This document shows positions 1,555 through 44,937 of a DNA stretch of 55,248 nt, piece after piece; position 1 is the first letter of the stretch; each line of letters starts with the position of its first letter. The notes below the pieces were generated by a model that ran no database searches, had not been told where the DNA came from, and saw only the letters and a program-made list of their open reading frames with translations. The DNA lies in NCBI GenBank assembly GCA_029259935.1, contig JAJDEH010000239.1, positions 1 to 55,248 of the forward strand, written 5' to 3'. The stretch comes from Planctomycetota bacterium. GTDB taxonomy: Bacteria > Planctomycetota > Planctomycetia > Pirellulales > Pirellulaceae. The translations under genes and the position numbers were made by a program.

Positions 1555-1602
1555 TGTTGGGCGTTGTTGATGAATTGACCCTTTAGATCAGTTGAATTTG
1601 AC

Positions 1603-2133: not shown

Positions 2134-2175
2134 TTGTTGGGTCACGAATTGCAGGTAAAAACTTAGACAGCTTTT

Positions 2176-3381: not shown

Positions 3382-3403
3382 CGCAGGGCCCACGCATACT
3401 TAA

Positions 3404-4783
3404 ATGTTTAATAGCTCTCTCACACTTCGAAGCTTCGCCGCGATCGTCGCCTTGCTAGTGGTTGCGCTAGGCATATTCGCTGGCGATTTGCAAGCGGCCG
3501 ATGATTCTTCGTCGATGGCCGTGACAAAGGCAGCTTCCGTTGAACAGGATGATACCGTTCGCTCGATGGCCGATTTCTTTGAGAAGACATGCGGTCTTCC
3601 CAATCTGCTGGCTCACCTGGTGACTGCCTTTATCAAATGGTTTTTGCTGATCCAGGTGGTGGCGGTGGGTGCCTTGGTCTTTATTTGGGCCGAGCGAAAG
3701 GTGTCCGGGCGCATTCAAGATCGGTTGGGGCCAACCCGTGTTGGCGGCAAGTTTGGCTGGCTGCAGGGTTTGGCCGATGGCATCAAGCTGATTGCAAAAG
3801 AAGATGTCATGCCGGGCGAAGCCGACGCGATGCTGTTCAAGTTGGCTCCCTATTTGAGTTTGGCCGCCAGCTCCACGGCGTTTTTGGCATTGCCGTTCGC
3901 CGATGGTTGGGTGGCTCAGCATATCAATGTGGCGGTGTTCTTCATCTTGGCCGTTTTGGGCCTGGAAGTGTTCGGCGTGATTTTGGCCGGCTACGGTTCC
4001 GGGTCGAAGTGGTCACTGTTCGGTGGCATGCGTGAAGCGGCTCAAGTCGTCAGCTATGAAGTGCCGCTTGGATTGTGTGTTGTCGTGCCGGTGCTGATTT
4101 GCGGAACGATGAATCTGGTCACCATTGGCAATATGCAAGCGGGCCTGTTCACGAATTGGCTCGTTTTTCACGATCCATTCACGTTTATTATCTTTTGGGT
4201 CTATTTCACCTGCGCTACGGCCAGTGTAAATCGCGCTCCGTTCGATCTGGCGGAAGCCGAAAGTGAACTGGTGGCTGGCTTTCATACCGAGTACTCCGGA
4301 ATTCGCTGGAGCATCTTTTTCATGGCCGAGTACGGATCGATGATCTTGGTCAGCGCGTTGGCGGCAACATTGTTTTTCGGCGGGTGGCACGGTCCGATTC
4401 CGATCTTTACTTGGATCGGCGGCGCGATGCAGTGGGAGAATTCCACGGTCTGGTATATCGTTGGCAATCTGGCTGGCGTCGTGAACTTCCTTGCCAAGAC
4501 GTCGATCGGCGTCATCGCGATGATTTGGGTTCGCTGGACCTTCCCTCGCTTACGTATTGATCAAGTTATCACCACCTGTCTTAAGTACTGCGTTCCGATT
4601 GCGGCCTTTTGCTTTATTGGTGTGCTGTTTTGGCAAACGGTTGTTCGTTGGTCGCCTAACGACCTGTTACCTGCCATGCGTCGAGGTCAGGTGCGTGAAC
4701 ATTGGGCCGAGGATCTCGTTGAACCTGACGAATCCGAAACAACTAGTGAAGATCGCCTGGCGTTGAAGGAGGAAGACCGATGA
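3404..4783 (+). CDS. nuoH: NADH-quinone oxidoreductase subunit H
   Basis: Multi-spanning membrane subunit that closes the quinone chamber of Complex I. Family motifs: WAERKVSGRIQDRLGPTRVG after the first core helix and the acidic EAESELVAGFHTEYSG loop. At 459 residues it exceeds the usual 330-400 because of an N-terminal extension of about 65 residues that begins with a hydrophobic, signal-like helix, and a polar acidic C-terminal tail. Its last four bases ATGA overlap the start of nuoJ, indicating translational coupling. Confidence 0.96.
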   Translation: MFNSSLTLRSFAAIVALLVVALGIFAGDLQAADDSSSMAVTKAASVEQDDTVRSMADFFEKTCGLPNLLAHLVTAFIKWFLLIQVVAVGALVFIWAERKVSGRIQDRLGPTRVGGKFGWLQGLADGIKLIAKEDVMPGEADAMLFKLAPYLSLAASSTAFLALPFADGWVAQHINVAVFFILAVLGLEVFGVILAGYGSGSKWSLFGGMREAAQVVSYEVPLGLCVVVPVLICGTMNLVTIGNMQAGLFTNWLVFHDPFTFIIFWVYFTCATASVNRAPFDLAEAESELVAGFHTEYSGIRWSIFFMAEYGSMILVSALAATLFFGGWHGPIPIFTWIGGAMQWENSTVWYIVGNLAGVVNFLAKTSIGVIAMIWVRWTFPRLRIDQVITTCLKYCVPIAAFCFIGVLFWQTVVRWSPNDLLPAMRRGQVREHWAEDLVEPDESETTSEDRLALKEEDR

Positions 4784-5394
4784 TTTTGCTCGCCTTCATC
4801 GACTGGCACACGTTTTTCTTTGCATTCTTCGCTTTGCTGGCCTGCGGGTTCGGCTTGGGTGTGCTGTTTTCGAACAATATCGTCCGCATGGCGTTTTTCC
4901 TGGTGTTGTCGTTGGGAGCCACCTCGGGCTTGTTTTTTCTAGCGGGTGCTGAATTTGTCGGTGCCATGCAGTTAATGATCTATGTCGGCGGCACGTTAGT
5001 GCTGTTGATCTTCGGCGTGATGCTGACGGCTCAAAAGTCATTCATCTCGATGAAAACGCGTGGTGGTGAATGGGTGATCGCCTGTTTTGTCGGCGGCAGT
5101 TTGTTGATGGTGCTGGTGACGGCCGCCTTGGGTGTGGAAAGCTGGTCGCAGCCTCGGCAGGATCGCGATCAGGTCACTCGCCTCGATGTGGAAGATACAA
5201 CTCAACTCGGCGTGACGATGCTGGGGGCGCACACGGAACGGCTAACCGAAGAAGACGAGGTGCGGCGGTCGGGCCTGTCGGGCTACCTGTTGCCCTTCGA
5301 GATTGTTTCCGTCCACCTCCTAGTCGTGTTGATCGGCGCGGGGTATCTTGCACGAGCGAAAAAACGAGTTAGCGCGTCGGCGGAAGAAAGTTAG
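4780..5394 (+). CDS. nuoJ: NADH-quinone oxidoreductase subunit J
   Basis: ND6-type membrane subunit of Complex I, 204 residues with about five predicted helices. The family core AMQLMIYVGGTLVLLIFGVML holds the glycine-bearing pi-bulge helix. A polar loop (roughly residues 125-165) precedes the last membrane helix, longer than in enterobacterial NuoJ. The start ATG lies inside the nuoH stop (ATGA overlap). Confidence 0.95.
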   Translation: MILLAFIDWHTFFFAFFALLACGFGLGVLFSNNIVRMAFFLVLSLGATSGLFFLAGAEFVGAMQLMIYVGGTLVLLIFGVMLTAQKSFISMKTRGGEWVIACFVGGSLLMVLVTAALGVESWSQPRQDRDQVTRLDVEDTTQLGVTMLGAHTERLTEEDEVRRSGLSGYLLPFEIVSVHLLVVLIGAGYLARAKKRVSASAEES

Positions 5395-5437
5395 ATCACT
5401 TTTACCAAAAGTCGGTTTCAATTCAAATCACTGCCTC

Positions 5438-5770
5438 ATGGATCTCACTCAACCAGTCACCGTTTCTCATTACCTCGTGGTCGGGGCTGTGCTGTTTGTC
5501 ATCGGCGCGGTCTGCATGGCCACGAAACGGAACGCGCTGGGGATTCTGATGGGGGTCGAATTGGTGCTGAACGGCGCGAACATTAACTTCATCGCCTTTG
5601 GCAGCAAGTATCTGCGATCCGAAACACTCGGTTTGGACGGGCAATTGATTGCCTTGTTCGTGATCGTCCTGGCGGCGGCCGAAGCGGCGGTGGCCCTGGC
5701 CATTGCGTTAAACTTTTACAACAACCATTCAAGCATTGATGTGGATCGGGCGGACGACCTGAAGGGCTGA
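5438..5770 (+). CDS. nuoK: NADH-quinone oxidoreductase subunit K
   Basis: ND4L-type subunit, 110 residues with three membrane helices. The conserved GVELVLNGANINF carries one proton-channel glutamate, and AAAEAAVALAIALNFY carries the second. I place the start at ATG 5438 (MDLTQPVTVSHYLVVG); the frame is open upstream to 5348, but that segment overlaps nuoJ and is highly basic and unlike the family. Its stop TGA shares one base with the ATG of nuoL. Confidence 0.94.
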   Translation: MDLTQPVTVSHYLVVGAVLFVIGAVCMATKRNALGILMGVELVLNGANINFIAFGSKYLRSETLGLDGQLIALFVIVLAAAEAAVALAIALNFYNNHSSIDVDRADDLKG

Positions 5771-8649
5771 TGTTAGACGTTTCCTCTTTGAAATGGTTGT
5801 TGTTGCTGGCAACGCTGCTGCCGTTGTTCTCGTTCGCGTTCATTTTGTGCGCTTATCCGCGAATTGGCAAAGCGTTTGGCAGCGGTTCTTGGATCGCCAC
5901 CGGCGCAATTCTGGCGTCACTCATTCTATCGTTCACCTCGCTGGGGATTTGGCTGCAACACCACTGGCCCGCCCGCGGGCACGGCGAGGAACATGCTGGC
6001 GGCCACGCGCGGGTGATCGAAGAAGATCGGACCACGCCGACGGCTTCGCTGGTTTCCTTCAAGGAAGAAAACGAGTCGTCCGAAGAAAGCGGGTCGGGAG
6101 AGGGTTCTTCCTCCGCCGATTCCGAAAACGATAAAGCCAAAGACCATGGTCACGGCCATGAACAGGAAAAGACGGCTTACACGGGTGACTATTATTTGCT
6201 GGGTCAGTTCGGCAAGTTGCGGCTGACGATCAGCTACTATATCGACACACTCACCATTTGCATGTTCTGTATGGTGACGCTGATTGCTTCGTGCATTCAT
6301 TTTTACGCGATCGGCTACATGCATGAAGAGTTGCATGAAGTAACCGATCATGAAGTCACGACCGGCGACGGGTCCCATTTGCATCGGCCGGGCCGCTATT
6401 TTCGCTTTTTTCAATATCTGTCGCTGTTCTGTTTCAGCATGCTGGGATTGGTGCTGGCCGGCAACATCGCGATGGTCTTCGTTTTTTGGGAACTGGTGGG
6501 CATCTGCTCGTATTTCCTGATCGGCTTTTATATCGAACGGAAGAGCGCTTCGAACGCGGCTAACAAGGCATTTATCGTCAACCGCGTTGGCGACTTCGGC
6601 ATGATCATCGGCCTGATGGCGCTCTGGAGCGGCTGCGGGACGTTTGCCTTTGGAGATATCGACTACGACGCAGACGGCAGTTTTCACGATACCGCCGAGG
6701 TAACGGAAGTCGGCATCTTCAGCCAGGTACGCCCGACTCCCAAAAAGTCGCACGAAGATCACGAGAGCCAGGAACATCACGGCCAAGAGAACCACGGTGA
6801 ACACGGCCACGAACTTCATGCTTACGCGCTGACGGTCCCCGAGGGGATGGTTCGCTACGCGGCGCAGCGGGAAATCGACGCCGTCTACGAGGATTACTGG
6901 AAGCAATATCCTGACGATCCCGAACAAGTCCAAATGGCGTCAGAGTCTGAGATTGCATCCCGGATAGATGGCAAATGGCGAGATGAGGGATTCGGCTACG
7001 GCCTATTAATCATCGCCGGCATTGGCATTTTTTGCGGATGCGTGGGCAAGAGTGCCCAGTTCCCGCTGCATACCTGGCTGCCCGATGCGATGGAGGGTCC
7101 CACGCCTGTTTCGGCGCTGGTTCACTCGGCAACGATGGTCGCCGCCGGCGTCTATTTGGTGGGTCGGTTTTATCCGGTCTTTGCGCCGGAAGTATTGCTG
7201 GTGATCGCCGTGATCGGCTGCATCACTTTGTTTATGGCCGCCACGATCGCGATCACTGCCACGGATATTAAACGGGTACTCGCCTATTCCACGGTCAGCC
7301 AGCTTGGTTACATGATGTTGGCTTTGGGCGTTGGCGGTTGGGTCGCCGGTTTGATGCACCTGATTACGCACGCCTTCTTCAAGAGCTTGCTGTTCATGTG
7401 TTCTGGCTCGGTGATTCATGCCGTCCACACGAACGAGATGCCCCAGATGGGCGGATTGCTGAAGAAAATGCCCGTGACCGGTTTCACCATGCTGGTCGGC
7501 TGCTTGGCGATAATTGGTGCCAGCGTGCCGTTGGTGGTTGGGCTGAGCGGTTACTACTCGAAGGACGCCATCCTCGAACAGGCTTGGTCGTTCATGGAGT
7601 CCAACTTTGTTGAATCCCGTAACGCCCCTTGGGCACCCGCGTTTTTCGGCATGGCTGCCGGCGGTGCGGTGATTACGGCCTTCTATATGTTCCGGATGTG
7701 GTTTTTGACCTTCCTCGGCAAACCGCGCGACGCGCATCGGTACGACCACGCACATGAATCGCCGCCCGTGATGTACGTTCCGCTGGTTATTCTGTCGGTG
7801 TTCGCGATCAGCGTGGCTTGGAGCCCCGAACCGGTCAAGTTCCTCGGCGGCTTGCCCTCAGGTTTGATCGGCGCGTTGATTTGCCTGCTGATCACGGGCG
7901 GAGCGGCGCTTTGGTTTAGGGCGTCGGCCGAGCAATCGGATCATCCGCCCGTCAATAAGAATTTGCTTTACGTGCCGGCCGCGCTGAGCGGATTGCTGTT
8001 GGTGGTAACGATCATCTGGTGGGCGGCCGATGATTTGCACGACCTTACTTTGGGCAATCTCTTGGAGCAAGCGCGACATCCCGGCACGGCGCCGCACGGC
8101 GATCACGGCACGTTTCCCGCCGCCGGCAAGGCCCAGTTGATGACGTTGGACGTTCCCAACGAACACTATATTCACAGCGATCAGTTCGCGAAAAAGGCGT
8201 TCGTGACGATGATCGCATTCTTCGCGGGAGTGGGCGGAGTGGGTTTGGCCGCGGCGTTCTACTGGTTCAAGTGGCTCGACCCGGTTGACGCGCGAAACCA
8301 GTTCAAGAGCGTCCACCGATTCTTGATTAACAAGTGGTGGTTCGACGAACTGTACGATTTCCTCTTCGTGCGTCCGGCCCATGTGTTGGCGCGGTTGGCG
8401 GCGAATTTCGATAAGCGCGTGCTGGATCGCCTGATCGACTCGCTCGCCTGGGGTGTCCGCGTGTTTTCCAACGCTTGGGAAAAAGTGGCCGACCAGACGA
8501 TTGTCGACGGGTTTGTCAATCTGTTCGCCAGTTGGACGTACAGCATTGGGGTTGCCTTGCGGCAGGTTCAACGCGGCCGCCTGCGTGAATACGTGATGTT
8601 TATTGTGCTTGGAACCGTGGTTTTATTTGTTTTGATTAGCTTCCTATAA
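5770..8649 (+). CDS. nuoL: NADH-quinone oxidoreductase subunit L, with His-rich insertions
   Basis: Antiporter-like distal subunit of Complex I carrying the long lateral helix. Core motifs: FWELVGICSYFLIGFY, FIVNRVGDFGM, PLHTWLPDAMEGPTPVSALVHSATM (split by family position) and DIKRVLAYSTVSQLGYMM, which together carry the channel Glu/Lys/His residues. At 959 residues it is far longer than the usual 610-650. Extra sequence lies at about residues 60-135 (acidic, with GHGEEHAGGHARV and DHGHGHEQEK) and about 300-400 (SHEDHESQEHHGQENHGEHG and a charged stretch), plus a long polar segment before the C-terminal helices. The histidine-rich inserts suggest metal binding or a pH-sensitive loop, by inference only. 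Confidence 0.96.
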   Translation: MLDVSSLKWLLLLATLLPLFSFAFILCAYPRIGKAFGSGSWIATGAILASLILSFTSLGIWLQHHWPARGHGEEHAGGHARVIEEDRTTPTASLVSFKEENESSEESGSGEGSSSADSENDKAKDHGHGHEQEKTAYTGDYYLLGQFGKLRLTISYYIDTLTICMFCMVTLIASCIHFYAIGYMHEELHEVTDHEVTTGDGSHLHRPGRYFRFFQYLSLFCFSMLGLVLAGNIAMVFVFWELVGICSYFLIGFYIERKSASNAANKAFIVNRVGDFGMIIGLMALWSGCGTFAFGDIDYDADGSFHDTAEVTEVGIFSQVRPTPKKSHEDHESQEHHGQENHGEHGHELHAYALTVPEGMVRYAAQREIDAVYEDYWKQYPDDPEQVQMASESEIASRIDGKWRDEGFGYGLLIIAGIGIFCGCVGKSAQFPLHTWLPDAMEGPTPVSALVHSATMVAAGVYLVGRFYPVFAPEVLLVIAVIGCITLFMAATIAITATDIKRVLAYSTVSQLGYMMLALGVGGWVAGLMHLITHAFFKSLLFMCSGSVIHAVHTNEMPQMGGLLKKMPVTGFTMLVGCLAIIGASVPLVVGLSGYYSKDAILEQAWSFMESNFVESRNAPWAPAFFGMAAGGAVITAFYMFRMWFLTFLGKPRDAHRYDHAHESPPVMYVPLVILSVFAISVAWSPEPVKFLGGLPSGLIGALICLLITGGAALWFRASAEQSDHPPVNKNLLYVPAALSGLLLVVTIIWWAADDLHDLTLGNLLEQARHPGTAPHGDHGTFPAAGKAQLMTLDVPNEHYIHSDQFAKKAFVTMIAFFAGVGGVGLAAAFYWFKWLDPVDARNQFKSVHRFLINKWWFDELYDFLFVRPAHVLARLAANFDKRVLDRLIDSLAWGVRVFSNAWEKVADQTIVDGFVNLFASWTYSIGVALRQVQRGRLREYVMFIVLGTVVLFVLISFL

Positions 8650-8667
8650 GAAGTTGTTAGTGATCCT

Positions 8668-10806
8668 ATGGACAACTTGTTGTTAACGGCCATCGTTTTC
8701 CTGCCCGCCGTCGCGGCTTTTCTGTTGATGCTGATTCCAAAATTGGCTCCGGAAGCGTGTCGGATGTTGACCTTCGCGGTGACGGCCATTGTGTTTGTGC
8801 TGACCATCGTGGCCGCCGTGGAATTTAATCGCGCGGATGCCCATATTCAGTCGTACCTCAACGAGGCCTGGATACCATCCTTCAGTATCAACTACTTCAT
8901 CGGTATCGATGGGATTAGCCTACCGCTGATCATGCTGACCTCTTTCATCAGCATGCTGGCGATGGCTGCCAGTTGGACCCCCAGCCTGAACAAGCACATC
9001 AAAGCCTATTGTGTGTTGTTTCTATTCTTGGAAACGGGCATGCTGGGCGTTTTCGTGGCGCTCGACTTCTTCCTGTTTTATGTCTTCTGGGAAGTTATGC
9101 TGCTGCCGATGTACTTTTTGATCGGTGTGTGGGGTGGTCCTCGCCGGGAATACGCCGCCATCAAGTTCTTCTTGTATACGTTGGTCGGCAGTGTGTTGAT
9201 GCTGATTGCGATTCTGCTGCTTTACTTCAACAGCGATCTGCGTAGCGTGGCTCAAGTCTCAGAAGTTTATGGCGATCAGCAGGTCGCCGTTGTTTGGAAA
9301 GATCTGCGCGTCAGCGAGCGCGAAGAAGCCCAGATGGGGATCTTCCGAGATAACGTTCAGGGCGGGCAATTGGTGATCGAGGCCGCCAAGGGCGAAACAT
9401 CATTGCGGTTGCTGCCCAGCGCTGAAGGGGATTCCACTAGTGCGTGGTTCGACCAGGGGCAGGACGCCGTGGTAGTCGCCGTCCACCCGGATCAAAACAC
9501 ACTGGCTGACGTTCAACGGGCGATCAAAGCCAGTAGCGACACATCCGCGAAGCTGATTGTTAATCTCGCCAGTGGTGCGCACGATGATGATGCCGTGTCT
9601 GACGCGCCGGTCCATACGTTTAATTTGCTGGCTTTGGCCGCCATTGGCCAGCACACGGACAATTTTAGCACCTCGCTGCAACGCTGGGCGTTCATTCTGC
9701 TCTTCATCGGTTTCGCCATCAAAGTACCTTCGGTGCCGGTCCATACCTGGTTGCCTGATGCTCACGTCGAAGCTCCCACACCGATCTCGATGATCCTGGC
9801 GGGCGTGCTGCTGAAGATGGGCGGTTACGGCATCATCCGCATCTGCTATCCGATTTGCCCGGCCGGCGGTTGCGACTTAGCGCTGTTGGTCTGTGCCATC
9901 GGCGTGATCAGCATGGTTTACGGTGCGTTTGCCGCGATGGCGCAAACGGATTTCAAACGTCTGGTCGCCTACAGTTCGGTGAGCCACATGGGCTACGTTG
10001 TGCTTGGTTTGGGAGTTTGGTCGGCGTTTGGAGCCAACGGTTACAACGCGGACTATTGGAACATGGGCGTCAAAGGCGCGATGTTCCAGATGATTGGACA
10101 CGGCGTGAGTTCGGCTGGCATGTTCTTTATGGTCGGCATTGTTTACGACCGCGTACATCATCGAAACCTCAACGAGTTCGGCGGGCTGTTTTCCAAGATG
10201 CCGATCTACACGGCATTGTCGATTGGTATCTTTTTCGCCGGCCTCGGCTTGCCTGGGCTGTGCGGCTTCATCGGTGAAGTGTTGGTGGTGCTGTCGGTTT
10301 GGAATTACAGTCCTTTCCTGGCCATTGTTTCCGCTTCGGTCGTGATCATCACGGCGGCCTACATCTTGTGGACCATACAACGAGTCTATCTCGGTGCCGA
10401 GTACACGGGTCCGCATGAGGAAGCACTGACACCGATCAACAGCCGTGAATTTGCGGTCGGCGTGACGCTGTTCATCTTTGCGATTATTTTCGGAGTCTTC
10501 CCGCACTCCATTCCGACTCCTAGTGGCGACAGAATTCCCACGGTGTTGGAGTTCATGGACGCTTCGATTGATCGGCAGACCGATGAACTGGCGGACTGGA
10601 CGAGAGAAAACCGGCGAGGCCATCACATGCCATATTGGCCTTGGGATGATACCGCCAGCGCCACTCGCGCGACGAGTACGCAAACTGCGGATGGCACGGA
10701 CCGAAATCCCAAGCAACAGCAGGTCACCGCCAAGCCCGCACCGGCTGACGACCAGGCAAACCTTCCCCTCAAACAAGCCGCCGCGCCGACCAGCAGCGGA
10801 GACTAA
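8668..10806 (+). CDS. nuoM: NADH-quinone oxidoreductase subunit M, with soluble insertion
   Basis: Second antiporter-like subunit of Complex I. Core motifs: FYVFWEVMLLPMYFLIGVWGG with the essential helix-5 glutamate, VHTWLPDAHVEAPTPISMIL, and DFKRLVAYSSVSHMGYVVLG with the channel lysine. At 712 residues it is about 200 longer than usual. One hydrophilic insertion of about 120 residues (roughly 192-315) sits between two membrane helices after YTLVGSVLMLIAILLLYF, and a Thr/Pro/Ala-rich tail of about 80 residues ends the protein. It starts 18 bases after nuoL. Confidence 0.95.
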   Translation: MDNLLLTAIVFLPAVAAFLLMLIPKLAPEACRMLTFAVTAIVFVLTIVAAVEFNRADAHIQSYLNEAWIPSFSINYFIGIDGISLPLIMLTSFISMLAMAASWTPSLNKHIKAYCVLFLFLETGMLGVFVALDFFLFYVFWEVMLLPMYFLIGVWGGPRREYAAIKFFLYTLVGSVLMLIAILLLYFNSDLRSVAQVSEVYGDQQVAVVWKDLRVSEREEAQMGIFRDNVQGGQLVIEAAKGETSLRLLPSAEGDSTSAWFDQGQDAVVVAVHPDQNTLADVQRAIKASSDTSAKLIVNLASGAHDDDAVSDAPVHTFNLLALAAIGQHTDNFSTSLQRWAFILLFIGFAIKVPSVPVHTWLPDAHVEAPTPISMILAGVLLKMGGYGIIRICYPICPAGGCDLALLVCAIGVISMVYGAFAAMAQTDFKRLVAYSSVSHMGYVVLGLGVWSAFGANGYNADYWNMGVKGAMFQMIGHGVSSAGMFFMVGIVYDRVHHRNLNEFGGLFSKMPIYTALSIGIFFAGLGLPGLCGFIGEVLVVLSVWNYSPFLAIVSASVVIITAAYILWTIQRVYLGAEYTGPHEEALTPINSREFAVGVTLFIFAIIFGVFPHSIPTPSGDRIPTVLEFMDASIDRQTDELADWTRENRRGHHMPYWPWDDTASATRATSTQTADGTDRNPKQQQVTAKPAPADDQANLPLKQAAAPTSSGD

Positions 10807-10862
10807 GCACGAGAATCAAGAATGTCGTGCCGCCGCATCCACCGGCGAGCCGAGAAGATTTC

Positions 10863-12764
10863 ATGTCAGAAAACCTGCACGAACTCGTCAGTGACCTCAT
10901 AGTCGATACCAAGGGATCGGCGACCGAACTCGTGACCGCCGACTCCAGTCTGGCGGCGTTCGGCCCTGAGTTGGTGCTTTGCGCGACGATCGTCGTGATG
11001 TTGATTTTCCGAATTTTCATCACTGGCCGCGCGGCTTACATTGCCGCCTTTTTGATTGCTTTGTCCGGCAGTTGTTTTGCGCTTTGGCTTGCCGCTCCCT
11101 GGACTCACCTCGCCAGCATTGCCGTCGACCATGCCAGTCCGGTGGCGGTTACGCGGATGGAAATCTTCACCGGAATGCTGGTGTACGACACGTTCAGTGT
11201 GTACATCCGCGCCGTTCTGTTGTGCTTTGTCGTGTTGTTCCTGCTGTTTACGCAGTTGTCGGGCCTAGCGAATCGCGACGATCGGTTTGATTTTTACACA
11301 TTGCTGTTGGGATCCACTTTAGGCATGTGTTTGATGGCCTCGGCCAACCACTTGCTGATGATCTTCGTCGCCGTGGAAATGGCCAGCGTGCCTTCCTACG
11401 CCTTGGCGGGCCTGATGAAAGGCCGCCGTGTCGCCAGCGAAGCGGCTTTGAAATATGCGGTTTACGGTGCCGGAGCGGCTGGCGTGATGTTGTATGGAAT
11501 CAGCCTGGTGGCCGGTTTGCTCAACACGGCCCACTTGCCGACCATGGCCATCCGCTTGGCCGAGTATTTGGGCGAAGGGCCGGTGGGCGGGGCTGACACG
11601 ATGGTACTGGCCTTGGGCGGACTAATGATCATGGTCGGCCTAGCATTCAAGTTGTCCGCCGTGCCATTTCATTTCTGGTGTCCCGACGTATTCGAAGGGG
11701 CGACGGCCGAGATCAATGCATTTTTGAGTGTGGCCTCGAAGGCGGCCGCTTTGGCGTTGTTGGTTCGCGTGGCGCTCGGATTTGGAGTGGTGCCGACGCC
11801 GTCGGTCGAAGTCAGCCAGGTTGCCGCCATGGATCAAGAGTCGCTGCCCAACGAAGCGTATTTCAAACCTGGGGCTCGCAGTCTATACCACGCCAAGTTT
11901 CCTTCGGCACCGGCCGCTGATTCGTCGGCCGATGAGGAGACGGCGCAACGCAACGAGGCGACCTCCACGCCCTTTGTGATGGTCAGCACCAGCGATGAAG
12001 AACTGGACGTTCCCCAGGATGCCATGTCGTCCTTGAGTCCCGTGCGCATGTTTATCGCCAAAGTGATCGCGCTATTTGCCGTAATTACTTGTACCTTCGG
12101 CAACCTGGCTGCCTACGGACAGACGAACATTAAGCGTCTGATGGCCTATTCGACGATCGCCCATGCCGGTTATATGATGATGCCCGTGCCGGTGATCATG
12201 GTGATGGCAGGCCACGATGTGTCGATCGCTGAATCGGCCGTGTCGGCGCTTTGTATCTATATCGCGGTCTACCTTTTCATGAATTTGGGGGCGTTCGCCG
12301 TGATCGCCTTCCTCGGTAAGGCGATGCGAAGTGACGAGATCGCCGACTACTCGGGGCTGATCCGCCGCTGCCCGTTTTTGGTGATCTGCCTTTCGCTGAT
12401 TATGTTTAGCCTGATCGGCATGCCGCCGTTGGCGGGCTTTGTTGGCAAGTTTGCGATCTTCGCCTCGCTGGCCGATGGCTGGCGTTCGGCAACGGCGGCC
12501 GACATACCGGCCACGTTCTTACTGGTGCTGTTGTTGGTTGGCGGTGTGAATACGGCGATCAGCTTGTTCTATTATTTGCGTGTCGTGAAGACGATGACGC
12601 TGGACCCGGAACCGGAAGGCCGTGAGCCCTTTGTCGGGCCGGACATATTCCAGCGAGGATTTGTCTTGTTGATGGCGGGGGCGACGATTGTGCTTTTTAT
12701 CGCGTGGGACTGGCTGAGCGGCATTGGCCAAGTTGCCGCCCATCATTTGTTCCCTCTCTCCTAA
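10863..12764 (+). CDS. nuoN: NADH-quinone oxidoreductase subunit N, with soluble insertion
   Basis: Third antiporter-like subunit of Complex I, next to NuoK in the membrane arm. Motifs: NHLLMIFVAVEMASVPSYAL with the key glutamate, SAVPFHFWCPDVFEGA, and NIKRLMAYSTIAHAGYMMM. Length is 633 residues against the usual 480-500; the extra part is a polar insertion at about residues 310-390 (acidic, Ser/Ala-rich) between membrane helices. I prefer ATG 10863 (MSENLHELVSDL) over the in-frame GTG 10827, whose 12 extra residues are proline-rich and uncharacteristic. It is the last nuo gene of the operon. Confidence 0.93.
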   Translation: MSENLHELVSDLIVDTKGSATELVTADSSLAAFGPELVLCATIVVMLIFRIFITGRAAYIAAFLIALSGSCFALWLAAPWTHLASIAVDHASPVAVTRMEIFTGMLVYDTFSVYIRAVLLCFVVLFLLFTQLSGLANRDDRFDFYTLLLGSTLGMCLMASANHLLMIFVAVEMASVPSYALAGLMKGRRVASEAALKYAVYGAGAAGVMLYGISLVAGLLNTAHLPTMAIRLAEYLGEGPVGGADTMVLALGGLMIMVGLAFKLSAVPFHFWCPDVFEGATAEINAFLSVASKAAALALLVRVALGFGVVPTPSVEVSQVAAMDQESLPNEAYFKPGARSLYHAKFPSAPAADSSADEETAQRNEATSTPFVMVSTSDEELDVPQDAMSSLSPVRMFIAKVIALFAVITCTFGNLAAYGQTNIKRLMAYSTIAHAGYMMMPVPVIMVMAGHDVSIAESAVSALCIYIAVYLFMNLGAFAVIAFLGKAMRSDEIADYSGLIRRCPFLVICLSLIMFSLIGMPPLAGFVGKFAIFASLADGWRSATAADIPATFLLVLLLVGGVNTAISLFYYLRVVKTMTLDPEPEGREPFVGPDIFQRGFVLLMAGATIVLFIAWDWLSGIGQVAAHHLFPLS

Positions 12765-22032: not shown

Positions 22033-22980
22033 TTAACCGCCAGCGCAATCGCTGGCGATTACGCGAAGCTGTTTTGGCAACGGAAAGTGGACTTCTTCCT
22101 CGCGAATCGTGCGCATCTCGACTGTTGCCCCGAATTGCTGTTGAAGATAAGAAACGCATTCCTGGACTACGGATTCAGGCGCGCTCGCTCCGGCCGTGAC
22201 CAACACGGTTTCATCGCCCCGAAACCAATCCGCGTGAATGTCGGCCGCACTGTCGATCAAGTGCGAACGAACGTTGTGTTCCATCGACAATTCTCGCAGC
22301 CGTTGGCTGTTGGAACTGTTCTGACTCCCCAACACCAAAGTGATACTCACCTCGCCGGACAGCGTGGCAACGGCCTCTTGCCGATTTTGAGTCGCGTAAC
22401 AGATGTCGTCTTTTGGAGGGTTCGCGATATTGGGATAGCGTTCGCGAAGCCGGTCTATGATACGATTCGCGTCGTCCACGGATAAGGTTGTTTGCGTCAA
22501 ATAGGCAACTTTGGTGTCAATGGGGATTTCCAACAAATCGACATCCTCTTCGGATTCGACAAGTACCATGGCGTTCGGTGCTTCGCCCATCGTGCCGATC
22601 ACTTCATCGTGCCCCTCGTGTCCGATGAGAAAAATAGTGTATCCCTCTTTTGCGAAGCGGATGGCCTCCAGATGGACCTTCGTCACCAACGGGCAAGTGG
22701 CGTCGATGGCGTTGAGCTTCCGCTGCCGCGCCTTGAGACGGATTTCTGGCGACACGCCATGCGCCGAAAACAACAACGTCGCGCCTTCAGGCACGTCGTC
22801 CAGATCGTCGACAAATACAGCACCCTTCTCGGAAAACGTACTCACCACGAACTTGTTGTGGACGATTTCATGGTAAACATAAACCGGCGGCCCAAATGCC
22901 TCCAGCGCGAGATCGAGGCTTTCGATGGCCATGTTCACGCCGGCACAAAAGCCGCGCGGGGCCGCGAGAATGATCTTCAT
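22033..22980 (-). CDS. ispH: 4-hydroxy-3-methylbut-2-enyl diphosphate reductase
   Basis: Last enzyme of the MEP isoprenoid pathway: a [4Fe-4S] reductase converting HMBPP to IPP and DMAPP. 315 residues, standard length. The three cluster cysteines are visible: C12 in LAAPRGFCAGV, one in NAIDATCPLVTKVH and one in DDICYATQNRQEAV. Further signatures are YHEIVHN, FSAHGVSP, GHEGHDEVIGT, and a late SAPE in TAGASAPESVVQE. It is transcribed away from hpnC, with only 134 bases between the two starts, so IPP supply and squalene formation share one intergenic region. The start ATG is the family's usual one. Confidence 0.97.
   Translation of the reverse strand: MKIILAAPRGFCAGVNMAIESLDLALEAFGPPVYVYHEIVHNKFVVSTFSEKGAVFVDDLDDVPEGATLLFSAHGVSPEIRLKARQRKLNAIDATCPLVTKVHLEAIRFAKEGYTIFLIGHEGHDEVIGTMGEAPNAMVLVESEEDVDLLEIPIDTKVAYLTQTTLSVDDANRIIDRLRERYPNIANPPKDDICYATQNRQEAVATLSGEVSITLVLGSQNSSNSQRLRELSMEHNVRSHLIDSAADIHADWFRGDETVLVTAGASAPESVVQECVSYLQQQFGATVEMRTIREEEVHFPLPKQLRVIASDCAGG
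22038..22057. terminator. Possible hairpin at the ispH 3' end
   Basis: A perfect 8-bp stem CGCCAGCG-CAAT-CGCTGGCG lies within the last codons of ispH, between two convergent genes. It lacks a clear T-run on either strand, so terminator function is only a possibility. Confidence 0.3.
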
Positions 22981-23100
22981 GGTTTTCGGACTCCTTGAAA
23001 AGCATCATAATGCAATCTCGCGGACGGGAGAATGACAGCTTCGTCTGGGCATTCCACCCTTGCAGACTAGTCCGCACAGGAAGCAAACCGCAATTCACAG

Positions 23101-23105
23101 GGAGG
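23101..23105 (+). promoter_or_regulatory. Shine-Dalgarno site setting the hpnC start
   Basis: GGAGG (in context AGGGAGG) ends 9 bases before ATG 23115. It touches ATG 23106, which is therefore too close to be used, so the second ATG is the better start. Confidence 0.7.
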
Positions 23106-23114
23106 ATGCAACTG

Positions 23115-24038
23115 ATGGCCGGCTACGATTTTGCCGCCCAACTGGACCAGTATGGTCCTCGGAGGCAATCCGGACCGGTATCACTTGACGATGCGCGCGC
23201 CTATTGTTCGCGTTTGGCCCGCACTCATTACGAAAACTTCTCGGTGGCCAGTTCGCTTGTTCCAGCGCGGCTGCGCCAGCATTTTGCAAATATTTATGCC
23301 TACTGTCGTTGGGCCGACGATCTGGCGGATGAAACCGGTGATTCGGCCGCCAGTTTGGAACTGCTGGATTGGTGGCGCGGCCAGCTTGAAGATTGCTTTC
23401 GGGGTCGGGCCGAGCATCCGGTCTTTGTCGCATTAACCCAATCGATTGAAGATTTTGACATTCCTCGCGAGCCATTTTGGGACTTGCTGTCCGCCTTTCG
23501 GCAGGATCAGCGCAAGACTCGCTACGAAACCGAAGACGAATTGCTAGATTATTGCCGGCGATCGGCCAACCCCGTGGGGCGACTCGTATTGCGATTGGGG
23601 CGGTGCGATGATGACGAAAATGTGCAATTGTCAGACTGCATTTGCACTGGATTGCAGCGGATCAATTTTTGCCAGGATGTTCGCCGGGATTTTGAGCGTG
23701 GGCGGATTTATCTGCCCCGCGAGTCATGGCGGAAGTTCAACATCGCCGAATCTGATTTCTCAGTTGATCGCGCCAACGCCTCGTTTCGGGAACTGATCGC
23801 ACACGAGGTGGATCGTGCGGAATCCCATTTGGTCCAGGGGCAGCCGTTGGTTGAGCGTGCCGCGCCCGACTTGCGAATGCCGATAGACCTGTTCGTGCGG
23901 GGAGGCTTGGCGCTGGTGCGGGGTGTTCGAAACATCCACTACGATGTATTGCGACGACGTCCGATTGTCGGTCGCTGGACAAAACTTCGGCTGATTGCGG
24001 GCGCATGGTGGCGTCACCGCCGAGGAGGCGCAAGGTGA
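23115..24038 (+). CDS. hpnC: Hydroxysqualene synthase HpnC (squalene/phytoene synthase family)
   Basis: Trans-isoprenyl synthase of 307 residues, assigned to the HpnC step (presqualene diphosphate to hydroxysqualene) of the three-enzyme HpnCDE squalene route. The first Asp-rich motif is WADDLADE (about residues 66-73) and the second is NFCQDVRRDFERGRIY, both needed for Mg-diphosphate binding. The family-typical N-terminal HYENFSVASSLVP distinguishes HpnC from HpnD. Order hpnC-hpnD-hpnE is the known cluster order. Its stop overlaps the hpnD start as GTGA. Confidence 0.93.
   Translation: MAGYDFAAQLDQYGPRRQSGPVSLDDARAYCSRLARTHYENFSVASSLVPARLRQHFANIYAYCRWADDLADETGDSAASLELLDWWRGQLEDCFRGRAEHPVFVALTQSIEDFDIPREPFWDLLSAFRQDQRKTRYETEDELLDYCRRSANPVGRLVLRLGRCDDDENVQLSDCICTGLQRINFCQDVRRDFERGRIYLPRESWRKFNIAESDFSVDRANASFRELIAHEVDRAESHLVQGQPLVERAAPDLRMPIDLFVRGGLALVRGVRNIHYDVLRRRPIVGRWTKLRLIAGAWWRHRRGGAR
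24022..24028 (+). promoter_or_regulatory. Shine-Dalgarno site setting the hpnD start
   Basis: GAGGAGG lies 6 bases before GTG 24035, inside the end of hpnC. This favours GTG 24035 over the ATG at 24005. Confidence 0.75.
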
Positions 24039-24976
24039 ACCTAACGCTCAAGGAGAGCTATCGCCAATGCGTTTCGATGTCGCGCCGCGCGGCATCCAAT
24101 TTCTATTGGTCCTTTTGGCTGCTGCCGCGGGACAAACGCCTGGCCATGTGCGCACTGTACGCCTTCTCTCGACATACTGATGATCTGGCGGACAGTGACC
24201 AGCCAGTGGAAAAACGCCGGGCGGCCGTTACCCAATGGCGCGAACTGTTGGCGGAAGCGCTGGACGGCAAGTACCACGAGACACTGCTGCCCGCCCTGGC
24301 AGATACGGCCCGGCGTTTTCAAATCCCCGGCGAATATTTGTTGGATATCGTCGACGGAGTGACGATGGATCTGCAACCCCGCCGGTATCAATCCTGGGAG
24401 GAGCTGCAGCAATATTGCCATCGGGTCGCTTCGGCGGTGGGGTTGGCTTGCGTTCATATTTGGGGGTTCACCGACGACGCGCATCGCGAACCGGCGCTCG
24501 CCTGTGGCTTGGCGTTTCAACTGACGAACATCTTGCGAGATCTGAAAGAAGACGCGGCCAGCGGAAGGATTTACCTGCCAATCGACGACTTGGATCGCTT
24601 TCACTACTCGGTGGAAGATATTAGTCGTGGCGTCGTCAACGATCGGTTTGGCGACTTGATGCAGTTTGAGATCCGACGTGCCGAACAACTGTACCGCGAC
24701 GCATTACCACTGACGGAATACCTTCATCGCGACGGTCGGCGTACCTTTCAGTTGATGATGGCGACGTACTGGCGGCTACTGAAAAAAATCCGCGATCGCT
24801 GGCGGGATGTGCTGTCGGTCCGCATACGTCTCAGCCGCGCTCAAAAGCTGAAGATAATATTCTCTAATCTAGCTGGTGGCGGAATGCCCAAGGTATCGAA
24901 TTCAGACGAGAATGGGTCTTCATCGCTGCCGTTGATTGGCGAGCCAACTCGAAATAGGACGAACGTTCGCGGTTAG
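24035..24976 (+). CDS. hpnD: Presqualene diphosphate synthase HpnD
   Basis: Trans-isoprenyl synthase of 313 residues that should join two farnesyl diphosphates to presqualene diphosphate. Asp-rich motifs are SRHTDDLADSD and QLTNILRDLKEDAASGRIYLP. The N-terminal SMSRRAASNFYWSFWLLPRDKR matches HpnD. GTG 24035 is used as start because of the strong upstream GAGGAGG, giving a 4-base overlap with hpnC and tight coupling. A 6-base gap leads to hpnE. Squalene from this route feeds hopanoid or sterol synthesis; no cyclase is in the window. Confidence 0.93.
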   Translation: MNLTLKESYRQCVSMSRRAASNFYWSFWLLPRDKRLAMCALYAFSRHTDDLADSDQPVEKRRAAVTQWRELLAEALDGKYHETLLPALADTARRFQIPGEYLLDIVDGVTMDLQPRRYQSWEELQQYCHRVASAVGLACVHIWGFTDDAHREPALACGLAFQLTNILRDLKEDAASGRIYLPIDDLDRFHYSVEDISRGVVNDRFGDLMQFEIRRAEQLYRDALPLTEYLHRDGRRTFQLMMATYWRLLKKIRDRWRDVLSVRIRLSRAQKLKIIFSNLAGGGMPKVSNSDENGSSSLPLIGEPTRNRTNVRG

Positions 24977-24982
24977 TGCTTC

Positions 24983-26416
24983 ATGTCGCAAGAGAGTGAA
25001 ACGTCTCGCCCCCATGTGGCAATTGTTGGCGGCGGGTTGGCCGGACTGGCCGCGGCGGTGGCCCTGTCGGAGCAGCCGTTGCATGTGGAACTGTTTGAAT
25101 CGCGCAAGCAGTTGGGAGGCCGCGCGGGTTCTTTTCGTGATCCAGCCAGCGGCGAATTGGTCGATCATTGCCAGCATGTCGGAATGGGCTGCTGCACCAA
25201 CCTGGCCGACTTTTATCGGCGAACCGGCATGGATAAATGGATGCGGAGCGATGATCTATTGCACTTTTTCGGTCCGGATGGCCGGCGGTTCGATTTTCGG
25301 GCGTCTCGTTGGTTGCCCGCGCCGCTTCATTTGGCCCCGGCATTGTTGGGACTTCGATATCTGAAACCGCGCGAGCGAATGGGCGTCGCCACGGCCATGT
25401 TCAAGCTGGCGCGCGCGGCGCGGAAGGAGACGACCGCAACCCCGTCCATTGGCGATTGGCTCCGCCAAAACGGCCAGTCCGAACAGGCCATCCAGCGATT
25501 TTGGTCCGTTGTGCTAGTGAGCGCGCTGGGAGAATCTATCGAACGCGCGTCGCTGTCCGCGGCCCGCAAGGTCTTCGTGGACGGCTTCATGGCTCACCGC
25601 GACGCCTATTGCATCCAGGTTCCCACAAAGCCGCTGGGCCAACTCTACGACGGGCATGTCGCCACTTGGCTGGCCGATCGCCATGTTGCGATGCATATGC
25701 AATCCCCCATCAAACAGATCCAAATCAACAACGATGGTCTGGCACTGCAACTTCAAGATGAATCAGTGCGTCACTTTGATGCCCTGGTGGTGGCCGTCCC
25801 TTGGCGACGCGCGACAGAGCTGTTCGTCCGTGAAATTTGGCAAAACCTGTTGCCGCTCGACGCCATTGCCGGAATTGGCGCTTCACCGATCACCGCTTGC
25901 CATCTATGGTTCGACCGCGCGATCACCGAGTTACCGCATGCAGTCTTCATCGACAAACTGAGCCAATGGATGTTCAACCGAGGCCCTCAGCCGCGAGTTG
26001 ACGATGCGGCGACGGATTCCCACGGCTATCAAGTTGTGATTAGCGCATCGCAAGAATTGACCGGGCGCGACCGCGAGGACGTCCTGAAAGAAGTACTCGA
26101 TGATTTAAATTCCGTGTGGCCGACGGTCCGATCGGCTCGTCTGCTTCGGTGGCGGATGGTGACCGAGCGAGAAGCGGTGTTTTCTTACACGTCGGGCCTC
26201 GATAACGTCAGGCCTCTCCAGCGGACCGATACGAAGGGCCTCTTTCTCGCCGGCGATTGGACCCAAACCGGCTGGCCTTCCACGATGGAGGGAGCCGTCC
26301 GCAGCGGTTATCTGGCGGCCGAATGCGTTGGTGAACTCTTTGGAATTCCGCAGCGCGGGTTGGCCTCTGAATTGCCGCGCAACTGGCTTGTTCGCTGTTT
26401 GCTTGGCGGCGATTGA
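24983..26416 (+). CDS. hpnE: Hydroxysqualene dehydroxylase HpnE
   Basis: FAD-dependent amine-oxidase-superfamily protein of 477 residues that reduces hydroxysqualene to squalene. N-terminal Rossmann motif VAIVGGGLAGLAAAVAL is followed by the acidic end FESRKQLGGRAGSF. GELVDHCQHVGMGC is typical of HpnE. The C-terminal FAD motif is GLFLAGDWTQTGWPSTMEGA. It is the third gene of hpnCDE with 6 bases to hpnD. All features expected of an active enzyme are present. Confidence 0.94.
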   Translation: MSQESETSRPHVAIVGGGLAGLAAAVALSEQPLHVELFESRKQLGGRAGSFRDPASGELVDHCQHVGMGCCTNLADFYRRTGMDKWMRSDDLLHFFGPDGRRFDFRASRWLPAPLHLAPALLGLRYLKPRERMGVATAMFKLARAARKETTATPSIGDWLRQNGQSEQAIQRFWSVVLVSALGESIERASLSAARKVFVDGFMAHRDAYCIQVPTKPLGQLYDGHVATWLADRHVAMHMQSPIKQIQINNDGLALQLQDESVRHFDALVVAVPWRRATELFVREIWQNLLPLDAIAGIGASPITACHLWFDRAITELPHAVFIDKLSQWMFNRGPQPRVDDAATDSHGYQVVISASQELTGRDREDVLKEVLDDLNSVWPTVRSARLLRWRMVTEREAVFSYTSGLDNVRPLQRTDTKGLFLAGDWTQTGWPSTMEGAVRSGYLAAECVGELFGIPQRGLASELPRNWLVRCLLGGD

Positions 26417-37530: not shown

Positions 37531-38880
37531 ATGCCATTTCTGGTGCCACAAGACGATGACCGGCGTCAGCCTTATGTGATTGGTACGCCCCATTGTGTAA
37601 TCGGTCGTTTGCCGGAATGCGAGATCGTTCTTAACGCGACCAGCATCAGTCGCCGTCATTCGCGGATTTCGTTCAAGGGCACCGACTTCTTCATCGAAGA
37701 TCTTCAGAGCCGCCACGGGACATACGTCAATGGCGAACGCGTTGGCGGTTGCCAACGGCTTCGTGCCGGAGACGAAATCCAAATCGCCGAAATCGGTTTT
37801 TGGTTTCAACTGGAGGCTACCGACGGTGGTTCTGAAAAGGGCGGCAAGACTGCTCGCTTGGTCGCGGACCAAACGCACGGATCAAAAGTGGTTGTGGATG
37901 ACTTTCGTCCCACGGCGTCGCACGAGCGACTAAGGCAGCGCGCGGATCTGTTGGACCGTGTCCGTGCTTTTTTTAAGACGCGAGATTTCCTCGAAGTTGA
38001 AACTCCGCTGCTGTCCGCCGATACCGTGGTCGACCGATATTTGGAGCCAATTCGAGTCTCTTTGGGGCCTGCGGGCGGAGGCAGCAAGCGGAGGTCGGAT
38101 GAAGGCCAAATGTGGCTGCAAACATCGCCCGAATTCTGTATGAAGCGGCTGTTGGCCAGCGGGCTGGAGGCCATTTTTCAAGTCACCAAAGCCTTTCGCC
38201 GAGGCGAGCAAGGCGCGTATCACAACGTCGAATTCAGCATGCTGGAATGGTATCGAGTGGGTGACACGCTGGATGTAGGAATGCAGTTGCTGGATGAGTT
38301 GGCTCAGGCCATGCTGGGTCGTGGCGCGGCTGAACGGATCAGCTTTCGCGACGCGTTTCAGCGACACGTCGAACTCGATCCGCACACGGCGGATCTTCAA
38401 TCGTTGCGGCATGCCGCCATGGCGCAACTGAGCGGCAGCATGGATTCGCTCGGGTCGCTGGATCGCGATGGACTCTTGAATTTGCTATTGGCTGAATGTG
38501 TTGAGCCACATCTGGGCCGTGAGCAGCCAACGATCCTGCACGACTATCCGGCCAGCCAAGCAGCGCTTGCCGTGATCCGCGCTGGTGATCCGCCCGTCGC
38601 GGAACGATTCGAGCTTTATGTAGATGGGATGGAACTGGCCAACGGCTATCACGAACTGGTGGATCCCGCCGAGTTGCGTGAACGTTTCGAGCAAATCAAC
38701 CAACAGCGGTTCGACGACGGCGCGACGCCCTTACCAATCGAAAACCGGCTGTTCAAGGCGATGGAGCATGGCTTGCCGACTTGTGCCGGCGTAGCGCTAG
38801 GATTCGATCGGCTGGTGATGGTGCAAACCGGTGCCCGTTCCATTGCCGAGGTCATCGCGTTTCCGCTAGACCGCGCCTGA
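37531..38880 (+). CDS. epmA: FHA domain fused to EF-P beta-lysine ligase EpmA
   Basis: A 449-residue fusion. Residues 1-95 form an FHA phosphothreonine-binding domain: G25-R26, S40-R-R-H43 and N67-G68 are all present in the correct order (IGRLPECEIV, ISRRHSRISF, DLQSRHGTYVNGERV). After a linker, about 128-449 form a LysRS-like EpmA that attaches beta-lysine to EF-P K34: VRAFFKTRDFLEVETPLLS, LQTSPEFCMKRLL, VTKAFRRGEQGAYHNVEFSML (given in parts), YVDGMELANGYHELVD and GVALGFDRLVMV, ending VIAFPLDRA as E. coli EpmA does. No anticodon domain is present, as in EpmA. The FHA part suggests phosphorylation-dependent recruitment or control, by inference. Confidence 0.93.
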   Translation: MPFLVPQDDDRRQPYVIGTPHCVIGRLPECEIVLNATSISRRHSRISFKGTDFFIEDLQSRHGTYVNGERVGGCQRLRAGDEIQIAEIGFWFQLEATDGGSEKGGKTARLVADQTHGSKVVVDDFRPTASHERLRQRADLLDRVRAFFKTRDFLEVETPLLSADTVVDRYLEPIRVSLGPAGGGSKRRSDEGQMWLQTSPEFCMKRLLASGLEAIFQVTKAFRRGEQGAYHNVEFSMLEWYRVGDTLDVGMQLLDELAQAMLGRGAAERISFRDAFQRHVELDPHTADLQSLRHAAMAQLSGSMDSLGSLDRDGLLNLLLAECVEPHLGREQPTILHDYPASQAALAVIRAGDPPVAERFELYVDGMELANGYHELVDPAELRERFEQINQQRFDDGATPLPIENRLFKAMEHGLPTCAGVALGFDRLVMVQTGARSIAEVIAFPLDRA

Positions 38881-43698: not shown

Positions 43699-44937
43699 AT
43701 GAAACACCCTGTTGCCGTGATCATTGTTGTCGTGATCTCGACAATCGCGCAGTGCCCGGCGGCCACATTGCGTGCGGTCCGGGCCGATCCGGGAACGCCG
43801 AAACAACAGTACTCGGCGATTTTCAAAGAATACAGTCCCGTCAGCGGCGGAATGCGAGATGCGACGACCGATCTGGAACGCAAGGCGGCCGTGGAACGTC
43901 TCGGCTCTTTCTCGTCGAAGTTCGTGGAGCTGGCGGCGAAGCATCCCCAGGATCCCATCGCTTTGAAGGCTTTGAGGCAGGCGGTGCAGATCGTTGTCAG
44001 CACGGATTCAGGGGCACAGAATGCCTGGGAGATCAACCGTTCGGACTTTCCGGCCGGAAGCATGGACGGTTCGGCCAGCAGGACGGTCGAACTGGTACTC
44101 CGCGACCATCTCCTCAGCGAAAAACTGGGCCCGGTTATCGACCGCATGCGGTATGGATACCGAATGGAATATGAAACGTGCTTGAGTGCCGTACTGGAAA
44201 AGAATCCACACCGGGATGTCCAGGCGCTGGCCTGCCTAGCCTTGGCCCAGTTTTTGAACGACCGCTTGCGAATGCTTCGACTTGTGGACGACCGGCCGGA
44301 ACTGGCGGAGTGTTACAGCATTGTGTTTGGCAAGGACTACCTCCCCGAGTTGCAACGACTGGGTCAAGCCAAACTCGCCGCGCGAATCGAAACTCTGTTT
44401 GAGCGAGCGGCCGGTGAATACGCCACGGTCAAGTTTCGCTCGGGTACCGTCGGTGAAACGGCCAAGTCCGAGTTGTACGCCCTCCGCAACTTGGCCATTG
44501 GCAAGGTTGCCCCAGAGATGGAAGGCAGGGACCAGGACGGCACGATGTTCAAGCTGAGCGACTATCGCGGCAAGACCGTGCTGTTGTACTTTTGGAGTGA
44601 GTTCTGACTGACGTGACGGACCACATGGCCTCACGAGCGGTCGCTCGTAACGAAACTGAAAGCAAAGCCATTCGCCCTGATCGGCGTCAATTCCTGGGTC
44701 CATGACCCGGGGAAACTCAAGGAAGAGATGACGAAACATAACATCAACTGGAGGTCATTTGACGACGACGGTTCAATCAATCGTCAATGGAACCAGCCCG
44801 CCACGCCGACGTTCTATATTATCGATCACAAGGGCACGATCCGCCGCAAATGGGTCGGCAAGCCCGGCGAAAAGTCCGTCGACACATCGCTGGAGAAGCT
44901 GATTCGAGAAGCCGAAAAAGCGGCCCGTCCCAAGTGA
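43699..44937 (+). CDS. TlpA/thioredoxin-like protein, candidate selenoprotein with UxxU (two in-frame TGA)
   Basis: Read through two TGA codons (44605-44607 and 44614-44616) this is a 412-residue exported protein. Residues 1-22 form a signal peptide; about 35-260 form a helical domain usual in planctomycete TlpA proteins; about 265-412 form a thioredoxin fold. NLAIGKVAPEMEGRDQDG and LSDYRGKTVLLYFWSEF lead into TGA-Leu-Thr-TGA-Arg, then WPHERSLVTKLKAKPFALIG, the cis-Pro segment QPATPTFYIIDHKGTIRRKW and the last helix, all in one frame. The two TGAs are residues 303 and 306, exactly the two Cys of CxxC. No other stop interrupts the frame. I infer selenocysteine; the alternative is a pseudogene broken at both active-site codons, in which case only 43699-44607 is translated. 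Confidence 0.75.
44614..44650 (+). promoter_or_regulatory. Candidate bacterial SECIS element downstream of the TGA pair
   Basis: After the second TGA, ACGAGC-GGTC-GCTCGT (44633-44648) forms a 6-bp stem with a 4-nt loop starting GG. The first loop G is 22 nt after the second TGA and 31 nt after the first. Known bacterial SECIS elements sit just 3' of the UGA with a G among the first two loop bases, roughly 16-37 nt away; the GGUC loop is like the one I recall for E. coli fdhF. A weak outer pairing ATGGC (44625-44629) with GCCAT (44667-44671) could extend it. Visual fold only. Confidence 0.55.

What the first reader, a model, noticed from the sequence alone, without database searches (positions are those of the whole stretch)
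43699..44937. Candidate UxxU selenoprotein: TlpA-like thioredoxin with both active-site Cys codons as TGA
The frame from 43699 to 44937 is continuous apart from TGA at 44605 and 44614. Before them is the classic run-in (VLLYFWSEF); after them, in the same frame, comes RTTWPHERSLV and the rest of the thioredoxin fold including the cis-Pro motif ATPTFYIID. In ordinary relatives this position reads WCGPCR. A random double hit on exactly these two codons, with nothing else broken across 412 codons, is improbable for a pseudogene. A GGTC-loop hairpin sits 22 nt after the second TGA. UxxU diselenide motifs are known in the SelL family (established knowledge), but I know of none in this planctomycete TlpA type.
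Basis: partly seen in the sequence, partly recalled or inferred. Interest (0 to 1): 0.93.

Follow-up and report, generated by a model that had tools for sequence, protein, structure and literature searches.

The report
Double-selenocysteine ResA-like planctomycete redox protein
A predicted secreted bacterial redox protein appears to use two selenocysteines instead of the usual two cysteines in its active site, both read from stop codons with the help of one small RNA hairpin, and the same double-stop gene recurs in more than a dozen related genomes.

Summary
Window 43699-44937 is one frame broken only by TGA at codons 303 and 306. Of 118 distinct homologous contexts read at DNA level, 17 (the window and 16 others from 14 genomes) are U-x-x-U, 73 U-x-x-C, 27 C-x-x-C and 1 other. 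A hairpin, ACGAGC-GGTC-GCTCGT, follows the first TGA at fixed distance: its 12-base core is exact in 81 of 90 Sec and 0 of 28 non-Sec contexts. SelA passes its cut-off in 14 of 14 genomes with the UxxU gene and in 0 of 8 relatives lacking SelB and tRNA-Sec. The UxxU forms fall in one clade, with two CxxC proteins nested inside. The redox domain is ResA/TlpA-like, behind a likely signal peptide and a helical domain of unknown family. UxxU in PF00578 proteins is already catalogued, and SelL is a known diselenide family, so this is a new variant of a known kind. Selenium in the protein, and Sec machinery in the window's own genome (not held), remain untested.

The parts
43699..44937 (+). UxxU redoxin selenoprotein gene, 412 codons plus stop TGA; most listed relatives are annotated as ending at residue 302
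43699..43788 (+). likely signal peptide / low-confidence N-terminus (residues 1-30)
   Evidence: hydrophobic stretch; pLDDT 49-59; inferred, no signal-peptide program was run
43789..44493 (+). all-helical N-terminal domain (residues 31-265)
   Evidence: AlphaFold2 of residues 31-264 alone, pLDDT 95.3; no Pfam match up to E 1 for the window's domain; no PDB match at E<=0.001
44494..44934 (+). ResA/TlpA-like redoxin domain (AhpC-TSA, PF00578)
44605..44607 (+). first TGA, predicted Sec303
44614..44616 (+). second TGA, predicted Sec306
44633..44648 (+). predicted bSECIS hairpin: stem ACGAGC/GCTCGT, loop GGTC
   Evidence: hairpin alone -7.9 kcal/mol
44806..44808 (+). Pro370 codon, the likely cis-Pro of the thioredoxin fold
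   Evidence: T369-P370 invariant in 12 aligned proteins; the role as cis-Pro is recalled
44935..44937 (+). TGA used as the true stop of the same gene

Best explanation
The gene encodes a probably exported, ResA-like thioredoxin-fold oxidoreductase whose two active-site residues are both selenocysteine (UxxU). When the ribosome reaches the first UGA, SelB with Sec-tRNA-Sec, bound to the downstream GGUC-loop hairpin (31 nt from UGA to loop), inserts Sec303; three codons later the second UGA lies 22 nt from the same loop, with 16 nt between it and the first stem base, so the same hairpin can serve a second insertion, Sec306. Both spacings fall in the published 16-37 nt range. The product is expected to cycle between a diselenide and two selenols and to exchange electrons with disulfides or oxidants outside the cytoplasm. 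Shown: the two TGAs and their conservation, the hairpin, its link to Sec forms, selection downstream, machinery in relatives. Inferred: actual Sec insertion, use of one hairpin for both codons, export, diselenide chemistry and substrate.
For: Both TGAs recur in 17 distinct contexts, the window's included. No TGA outside the two motif codons lies in the matched range of 89 of 90 Sec forms; the exception, L172 at +103, stands at the end of the homology and looks like its stop. HERSL is coded CAC GAG CGG TCG CTC in 78 of 79 Sec forms that have that peptide, although the joint usage of these codons in the window's other ORFs is 0.002. Exact core 81 of 90 Sec vs 0 of 28 non-Sec, Fisher 1.2e-19; all six stem pairs form in 88 of 90 Sec contexts, 17 of 17 UxxU, and in 1 of 28 non-Sec. 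Of 83 distinct exact occurrences of the 16-mer in all loci held, 80 have TGA exactly 28 nt upstream; two are unrelated (L111, L115) and one is a decayed redoxin remnant (L188). SelA over cut-off in 14 of 14 UxxU genomes, 0 of 8 Sec-lacking ones; SelB 13 of 14; tRNA-Sec 7 of 8 tested. pN is below pS downstream of the TGAs, as upstream, against all 14 homologs compared. Spacing rule: PMC13188914, section 5.
Against: No whole genome is held for the window. In UxxU genomes G004 has no SelB, G002 no tRNA-Sec, G358 and G054 no SelD over cut-off; these are many-contig assemblies, but their completeness is not given. SelD over cut-off is also found in one of the 8 Sec-lacking controls, G292. The isolated 58-nt RNA from the first TGA folds best into another structure that pairs the TGA region with the hairpin (-16.8 against -13.0 kcal/mol with the hairpin forced); its z-score is only -1.81. 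The hairpin alone gives -7.0 in two UxxU members, short of the -7.5 rule. Codon bias is also strong outside the hairpin, at Arg +4 and some other codons, and the sequences are related, so the codon p-values are not independent tests. Rfam has no match. No transcript or protein data.
Confidence: 0.93

Rival explanations
1. Partial recoding: only the first UGA is decoded efficiently as Sec; the second mostly terminates, or the 302-residue N-terminal form is itself a product made when selenium is short.
For: UxxC relatives have one TGA at the first position with the same hairpin spacing; termination competes with Sec insertion (established knowledge).
Against: The second TGA is kept in 17 contexts although TGC or TGT is one substitution away; the downstream part is under purifying selection.
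Confidence: 0.06
2. Pseudogene or sequencing error: the two TGAs are damage.
For: Decayed relatives exist: the L003/L004 copy changes frame within the gene, and L188 is a remnant.
Against: The same two TGAs in loci from 14 other genomes, no other in-frame TGA in 89 of 90 Sec forms, selection downstream.
Confidence: 0.005
3. UGA is reassigned to a sense codon across the host genome.
For: Two in-frame TGAs.
Against: TGA ends this same gene and is the stop of 12 of 40 mechanically called window ORFs, one of the 12 being the truncated form of this gene.
Confidence: 0.005

Closest known systems
Prx-like thiol:disulfide oxidoreductase selenoproteins (PF00578, UxxC/UxxU, 1-2 Sec; catalogues in PMC13188914 and PMC9312934)
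   Same: PF00578 domain and a UxxU motif
   Different: The window's gene has a helical N-terminal domain of about 235 residues; whether the catalogue's representative has one was not tested. No NCBIfam model reaches its cut-off for four members tested.
SelL, aquatic diselenide selenoprotein family
   Same: A diselenide redox motif; reported in fish, invertebrates and marine bacteria (PMC2397514 passages). That the motif is UxxU in a thioredoxin-like fold is recalled.
   Different: No SelL sequence was compared here; the PNAS paper is not held.
ResA / TlpA / DsbE thiol-disulfide oxidoreductases
   Different: Both Cys replaced by TGA; extra N-terminal domain; ResA model score 56.8 against a cut-off of 170.
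UxxC redoxins of related genomes
   Same: Related redoxin domain and the same hairpin at the same distance
   Different: One TGA only; usual motif WUGPCR or WUPPCR.

Membership tests
bacterial selenoprotein | in-frame TGA aligned with Cys in homologs | tested here: met
bacterial selenoprotein | bSECIS: 3-9 nt loop, 4-16 bp stem, G in the first two loop positions, 16-37 nt from UGA, MFE <= -7.5 | tested here: met
   window: loop GGTC, 6 bp, 31 and 22 nt, -7.9 kcal/mol; two other UxxU members give -7.0; rule from PMC13188914
bacterial selenoprotein | Sec machinery in the host genome | tested here: inconclusive
   own genome not held; in relatives SelA 14 of 14, SelB 13 of 14, tRNA-Sec 7 of 8, SelD 7 of 9 over cut-off
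bacterial selenoprotein | selenium in the protein | not testable with these tools
   needs mass spectrometry or 75Se labelling
Prx-like thiol:disulfide oxidoreductase (PF00578, UxxU) | PF00578 domain | tested here: met
   69.8 bits, cut-off 26
Prx-like thiol:disulfide oxidoreductase (PF00578, UxxU) | UxxU motif | tested here: met
Prx-like thiol:disulfide oxidoreductase (PF00578, UxxU) | homology over the full length to the catalogue's representative WP_010940744.1 | not tested
   sequence not fetched
SelL | sequence homology to SelL | not tested
   no SelL sequence compared
ResA | NCBIfam ResA model above its cut-off | tested here: not met
   56.8 against 170
ResA | ResA-like fold of the redox domain | tested here: met

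The most novel reading that the evidence does not exclude
One nearly invariant 16-nt hairpin directs two Sec insertions nine nucleotides apart, giving a diselenide-centred exported ResA-like enzyme; the second Sec was gained once, on a UxxC selenoprotein that already had the hairpin, and was later lost together with the first in a nested CxxC lineage. In 10 of 17 UxxU members the best fold of the isolated RNA pairs the TGA region with the hairpin, which could hide the SECIS until a ribosome opens it.
Probability: 0.7. Interest if true: 0.7.

Novelty: new variant of a known kind. Interest (0 to 1): 0.62.

Why it matters
It offers a conserved natural case in which two Sec codons nine bases apart appear to share one bacterial SECIS, with UxxC and CxxC relatives as built-in controls. 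That makes the value of a diselenide over a selenenylsulfide or a disulfide in one scaffold directly testable. It also shows a family cut short in databases: 116 of 119 listed homologs end at the place of the first TGA. The hairpin works as a search signature: the 16-mer is in 28 of 50 genomes searched, its reversed control in 2.

Tried and rejected

Corrected on checking: a first count of the 16-mer in loci L001-L140 (39 of 41, also in my notebook) was wrong; one search gives 40 of 42, and 80 of 83 with all loci.

Full report
Observation. Reading 43699-44937 with TGA as a residue gives 412 codons with TGA only at 303 and 306 and at the stop. The protein has a hydrophobic N-terminus, a long helical region and an AhpC-TSA redoxin domain.

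Homologs. A search of about 5.8 billion proteins scored 7997 candidates and gave 675 hits, of which 120 were listed. One is the window's own truncated form. Of the other 119, 116 end in W-x-[EQ]-x, the place of residue 302; two are full-length with Cys at both positions (P0003 CLPC, P0035 CLTC); one ends otherwise (P0045). Their DNA was not seen. At DNA level, loci came from a scan of genome contigs (5 loci) and three genome searches: the order of G004 (396 genomes, 133 with a match at 1e-10), the family of G003 (241 genomes, 12 at 1e-50) and the phylum of G002 (392 genomes, 42 at 1e-50). Both TGAs were reported at high similarity in 6, 5 and 6 of these genomes respectively, 14 distinct genomes in all, so the UxxU form is uncommon. 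G905 was also reported with 2 TGA, but its second TGA is near the end of the match and it is a UxxC form. Only a few candidates per genome were scored, so absences are not firm. After dropping 40 duplicates and 13 partial spans, 118 distinct contexts remained: 17 UxxU, 73 UxxC, 27 CxxC, 1 other; no CxxU. The 17 include the window and one copy (L003/L004, there L152) whose homology changes frame. The two middle residues vary (LT, LS, PT, RT).

The RNA element. In 79 Sec forms that have HERSL after the motif, 78 code it CAC GAG CGG TCG CTC; the joint usage of these codons in the window's other ORFs is 0.002. The next codon, Val, takes all four third bases (G 41, A 24, C 17, T 8), so the freeze ends where the stem ends, although GTA is over-used there in UxxC forms. 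In an earlier set of 86 contexts (11 UU, 48 UC, 27 CC) codon bias was strong at the hairpin codons in the UU and UC groups and at no codon of the CC group; it was also strong at Arg +4, before the hairpin, in both Sec groups, and at some further codons of the UC group. The sequences are related, so these p-values are guides only. The 12-base core is exact in 81 of 90 Sec and 0 of 28 non-Sec contexts (Fisher 1.2e-19), and all six stem pairs form in 88 of 90 against 1 of 28. The 16-mer occurs in 28 of 50 genomes and its reversed control in 2. Of 83 distinct occurrences in all held loci, 80 have TGA exactly 28 nt upstream; L111 and L115 are unrelated sequence and L188 is a decayed redoxin remnant. 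The loop lies 31 nt after the first and 22 nt after the second TGA; the published bSECIS model asks for 16-37 nt, a G in the first two loop positions and -7.5 kcal/mol (PMC13188914, section 5). The window's hairpin alone gives -7.9; two UxxU members give -7.0. Against the reading, the isolated 58-nt strand prefers another fold; a ribosome at the first UGA would open it (inference).

Machinery. No genome is held for the window. In relatives, SelA passes its cut-off in 14 of 14 UxxU genomes and in 0 of 8 genomes chosen because SelB and tRNA-Sec were not found. SelB passes in 13 of 14 (G004 missing), tRNA-Sec in 7 of 8 tested (G002 missing), SelD in 7 of 9 (G358 and G054 missing) and in 1 of the 8 controls. 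Over 50 genomes with redoxin hits, 27 of 27 with a Sec form have SelB or tRNA-Sec, against 15 of 23 without one (Fisher 0.0009, lists typed by hand).

Selection and evolution. Against 14 UxxU homologs, nonsynonymous differences stay below synonymous ones after the TGAs, as before them (for L014: pS 0.45, pN 0.09 downstream; 0.59 and 0.16 upstream); for the far homologs synonymous change is near saturation. A tree of 88 redoxin domains, motif masked, puts the 11 UxxU rows and the two Cys proteins P0003 and P0035 in one clade (SH-aLRT 99), with the two Cys proteins inside a set of five that holds the window (95). The next wider set mixes UxxC and CxxC, and 42 of 85 inner branches are open. One gain of the second Sec on a UxxC gene, and one return to CxxC, is the simplest story; the UxxC step is inferred from the shared hairpin.

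Known work. Papers seen: PMC13188914 (abstract, section 5, parts 1 and 2 of 3 of section 7, passages); PMC9312934, PMC2398784, PMC4807772, PMC7539508, PMC1242214, PMC1088965 and PMC2397514 (passages only). The catalogues list a PF00578 'Prx-like thiol:disulfide oxidoreductase' with UxxC or UxxU. UxxU was also seen in a Prx-like 2 family in GOS data. Some planctomycetes are known to encode Sec machinery and selenoproteins. So the kind is known; what is added here is this subfamily with its own N-terminal domain, one hairpin within range of two UGAs, and close UxxC and CxxC relatives.

Noticed in passing
L003 8001-9200, L004 8001-9200: A UxxU copy in two MAGs (isolates NIOZ-UU7 and BS150m-G36) whose homology changes frame twice, at about query residues 146 and 322, while keeping both TGAs and the hairpin.
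   Followed up: partly
L188 (G192:C10:8400-9700), hairpin at 591: A decayed remnant of a redoxin gene that still holds the exact hairpin; the homology is broken and split between frames.
   Followed up: partly
G003, G192, G013, G333, G344, G346: Several Sec redoxin paralogs per genome, some side by side (L046, L048, L024).
   Followed up: partly
selD matches in G437, G012, G004, G003, G002, G292: SelD itself has one in-frame TGA in these six genomes, so it is probably a selenoprotein there.
   Followed up: no
window 913-12761: Run of genes with Pfam hits for NADH dehydrogenase (complex I) subunits.
   Followed up: no
window 22036-26413: LytB, two squalene/phytoene synthases side by side and an amine-oxidase-type flavoprotein, resembling a hopanoid or squalene cluster (recalled).
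   Followed up: no
window 37531-38880: A protein with an FHA domain in front of a class II tRNA synthetase (D, K, N) domain.
   Followed up: no
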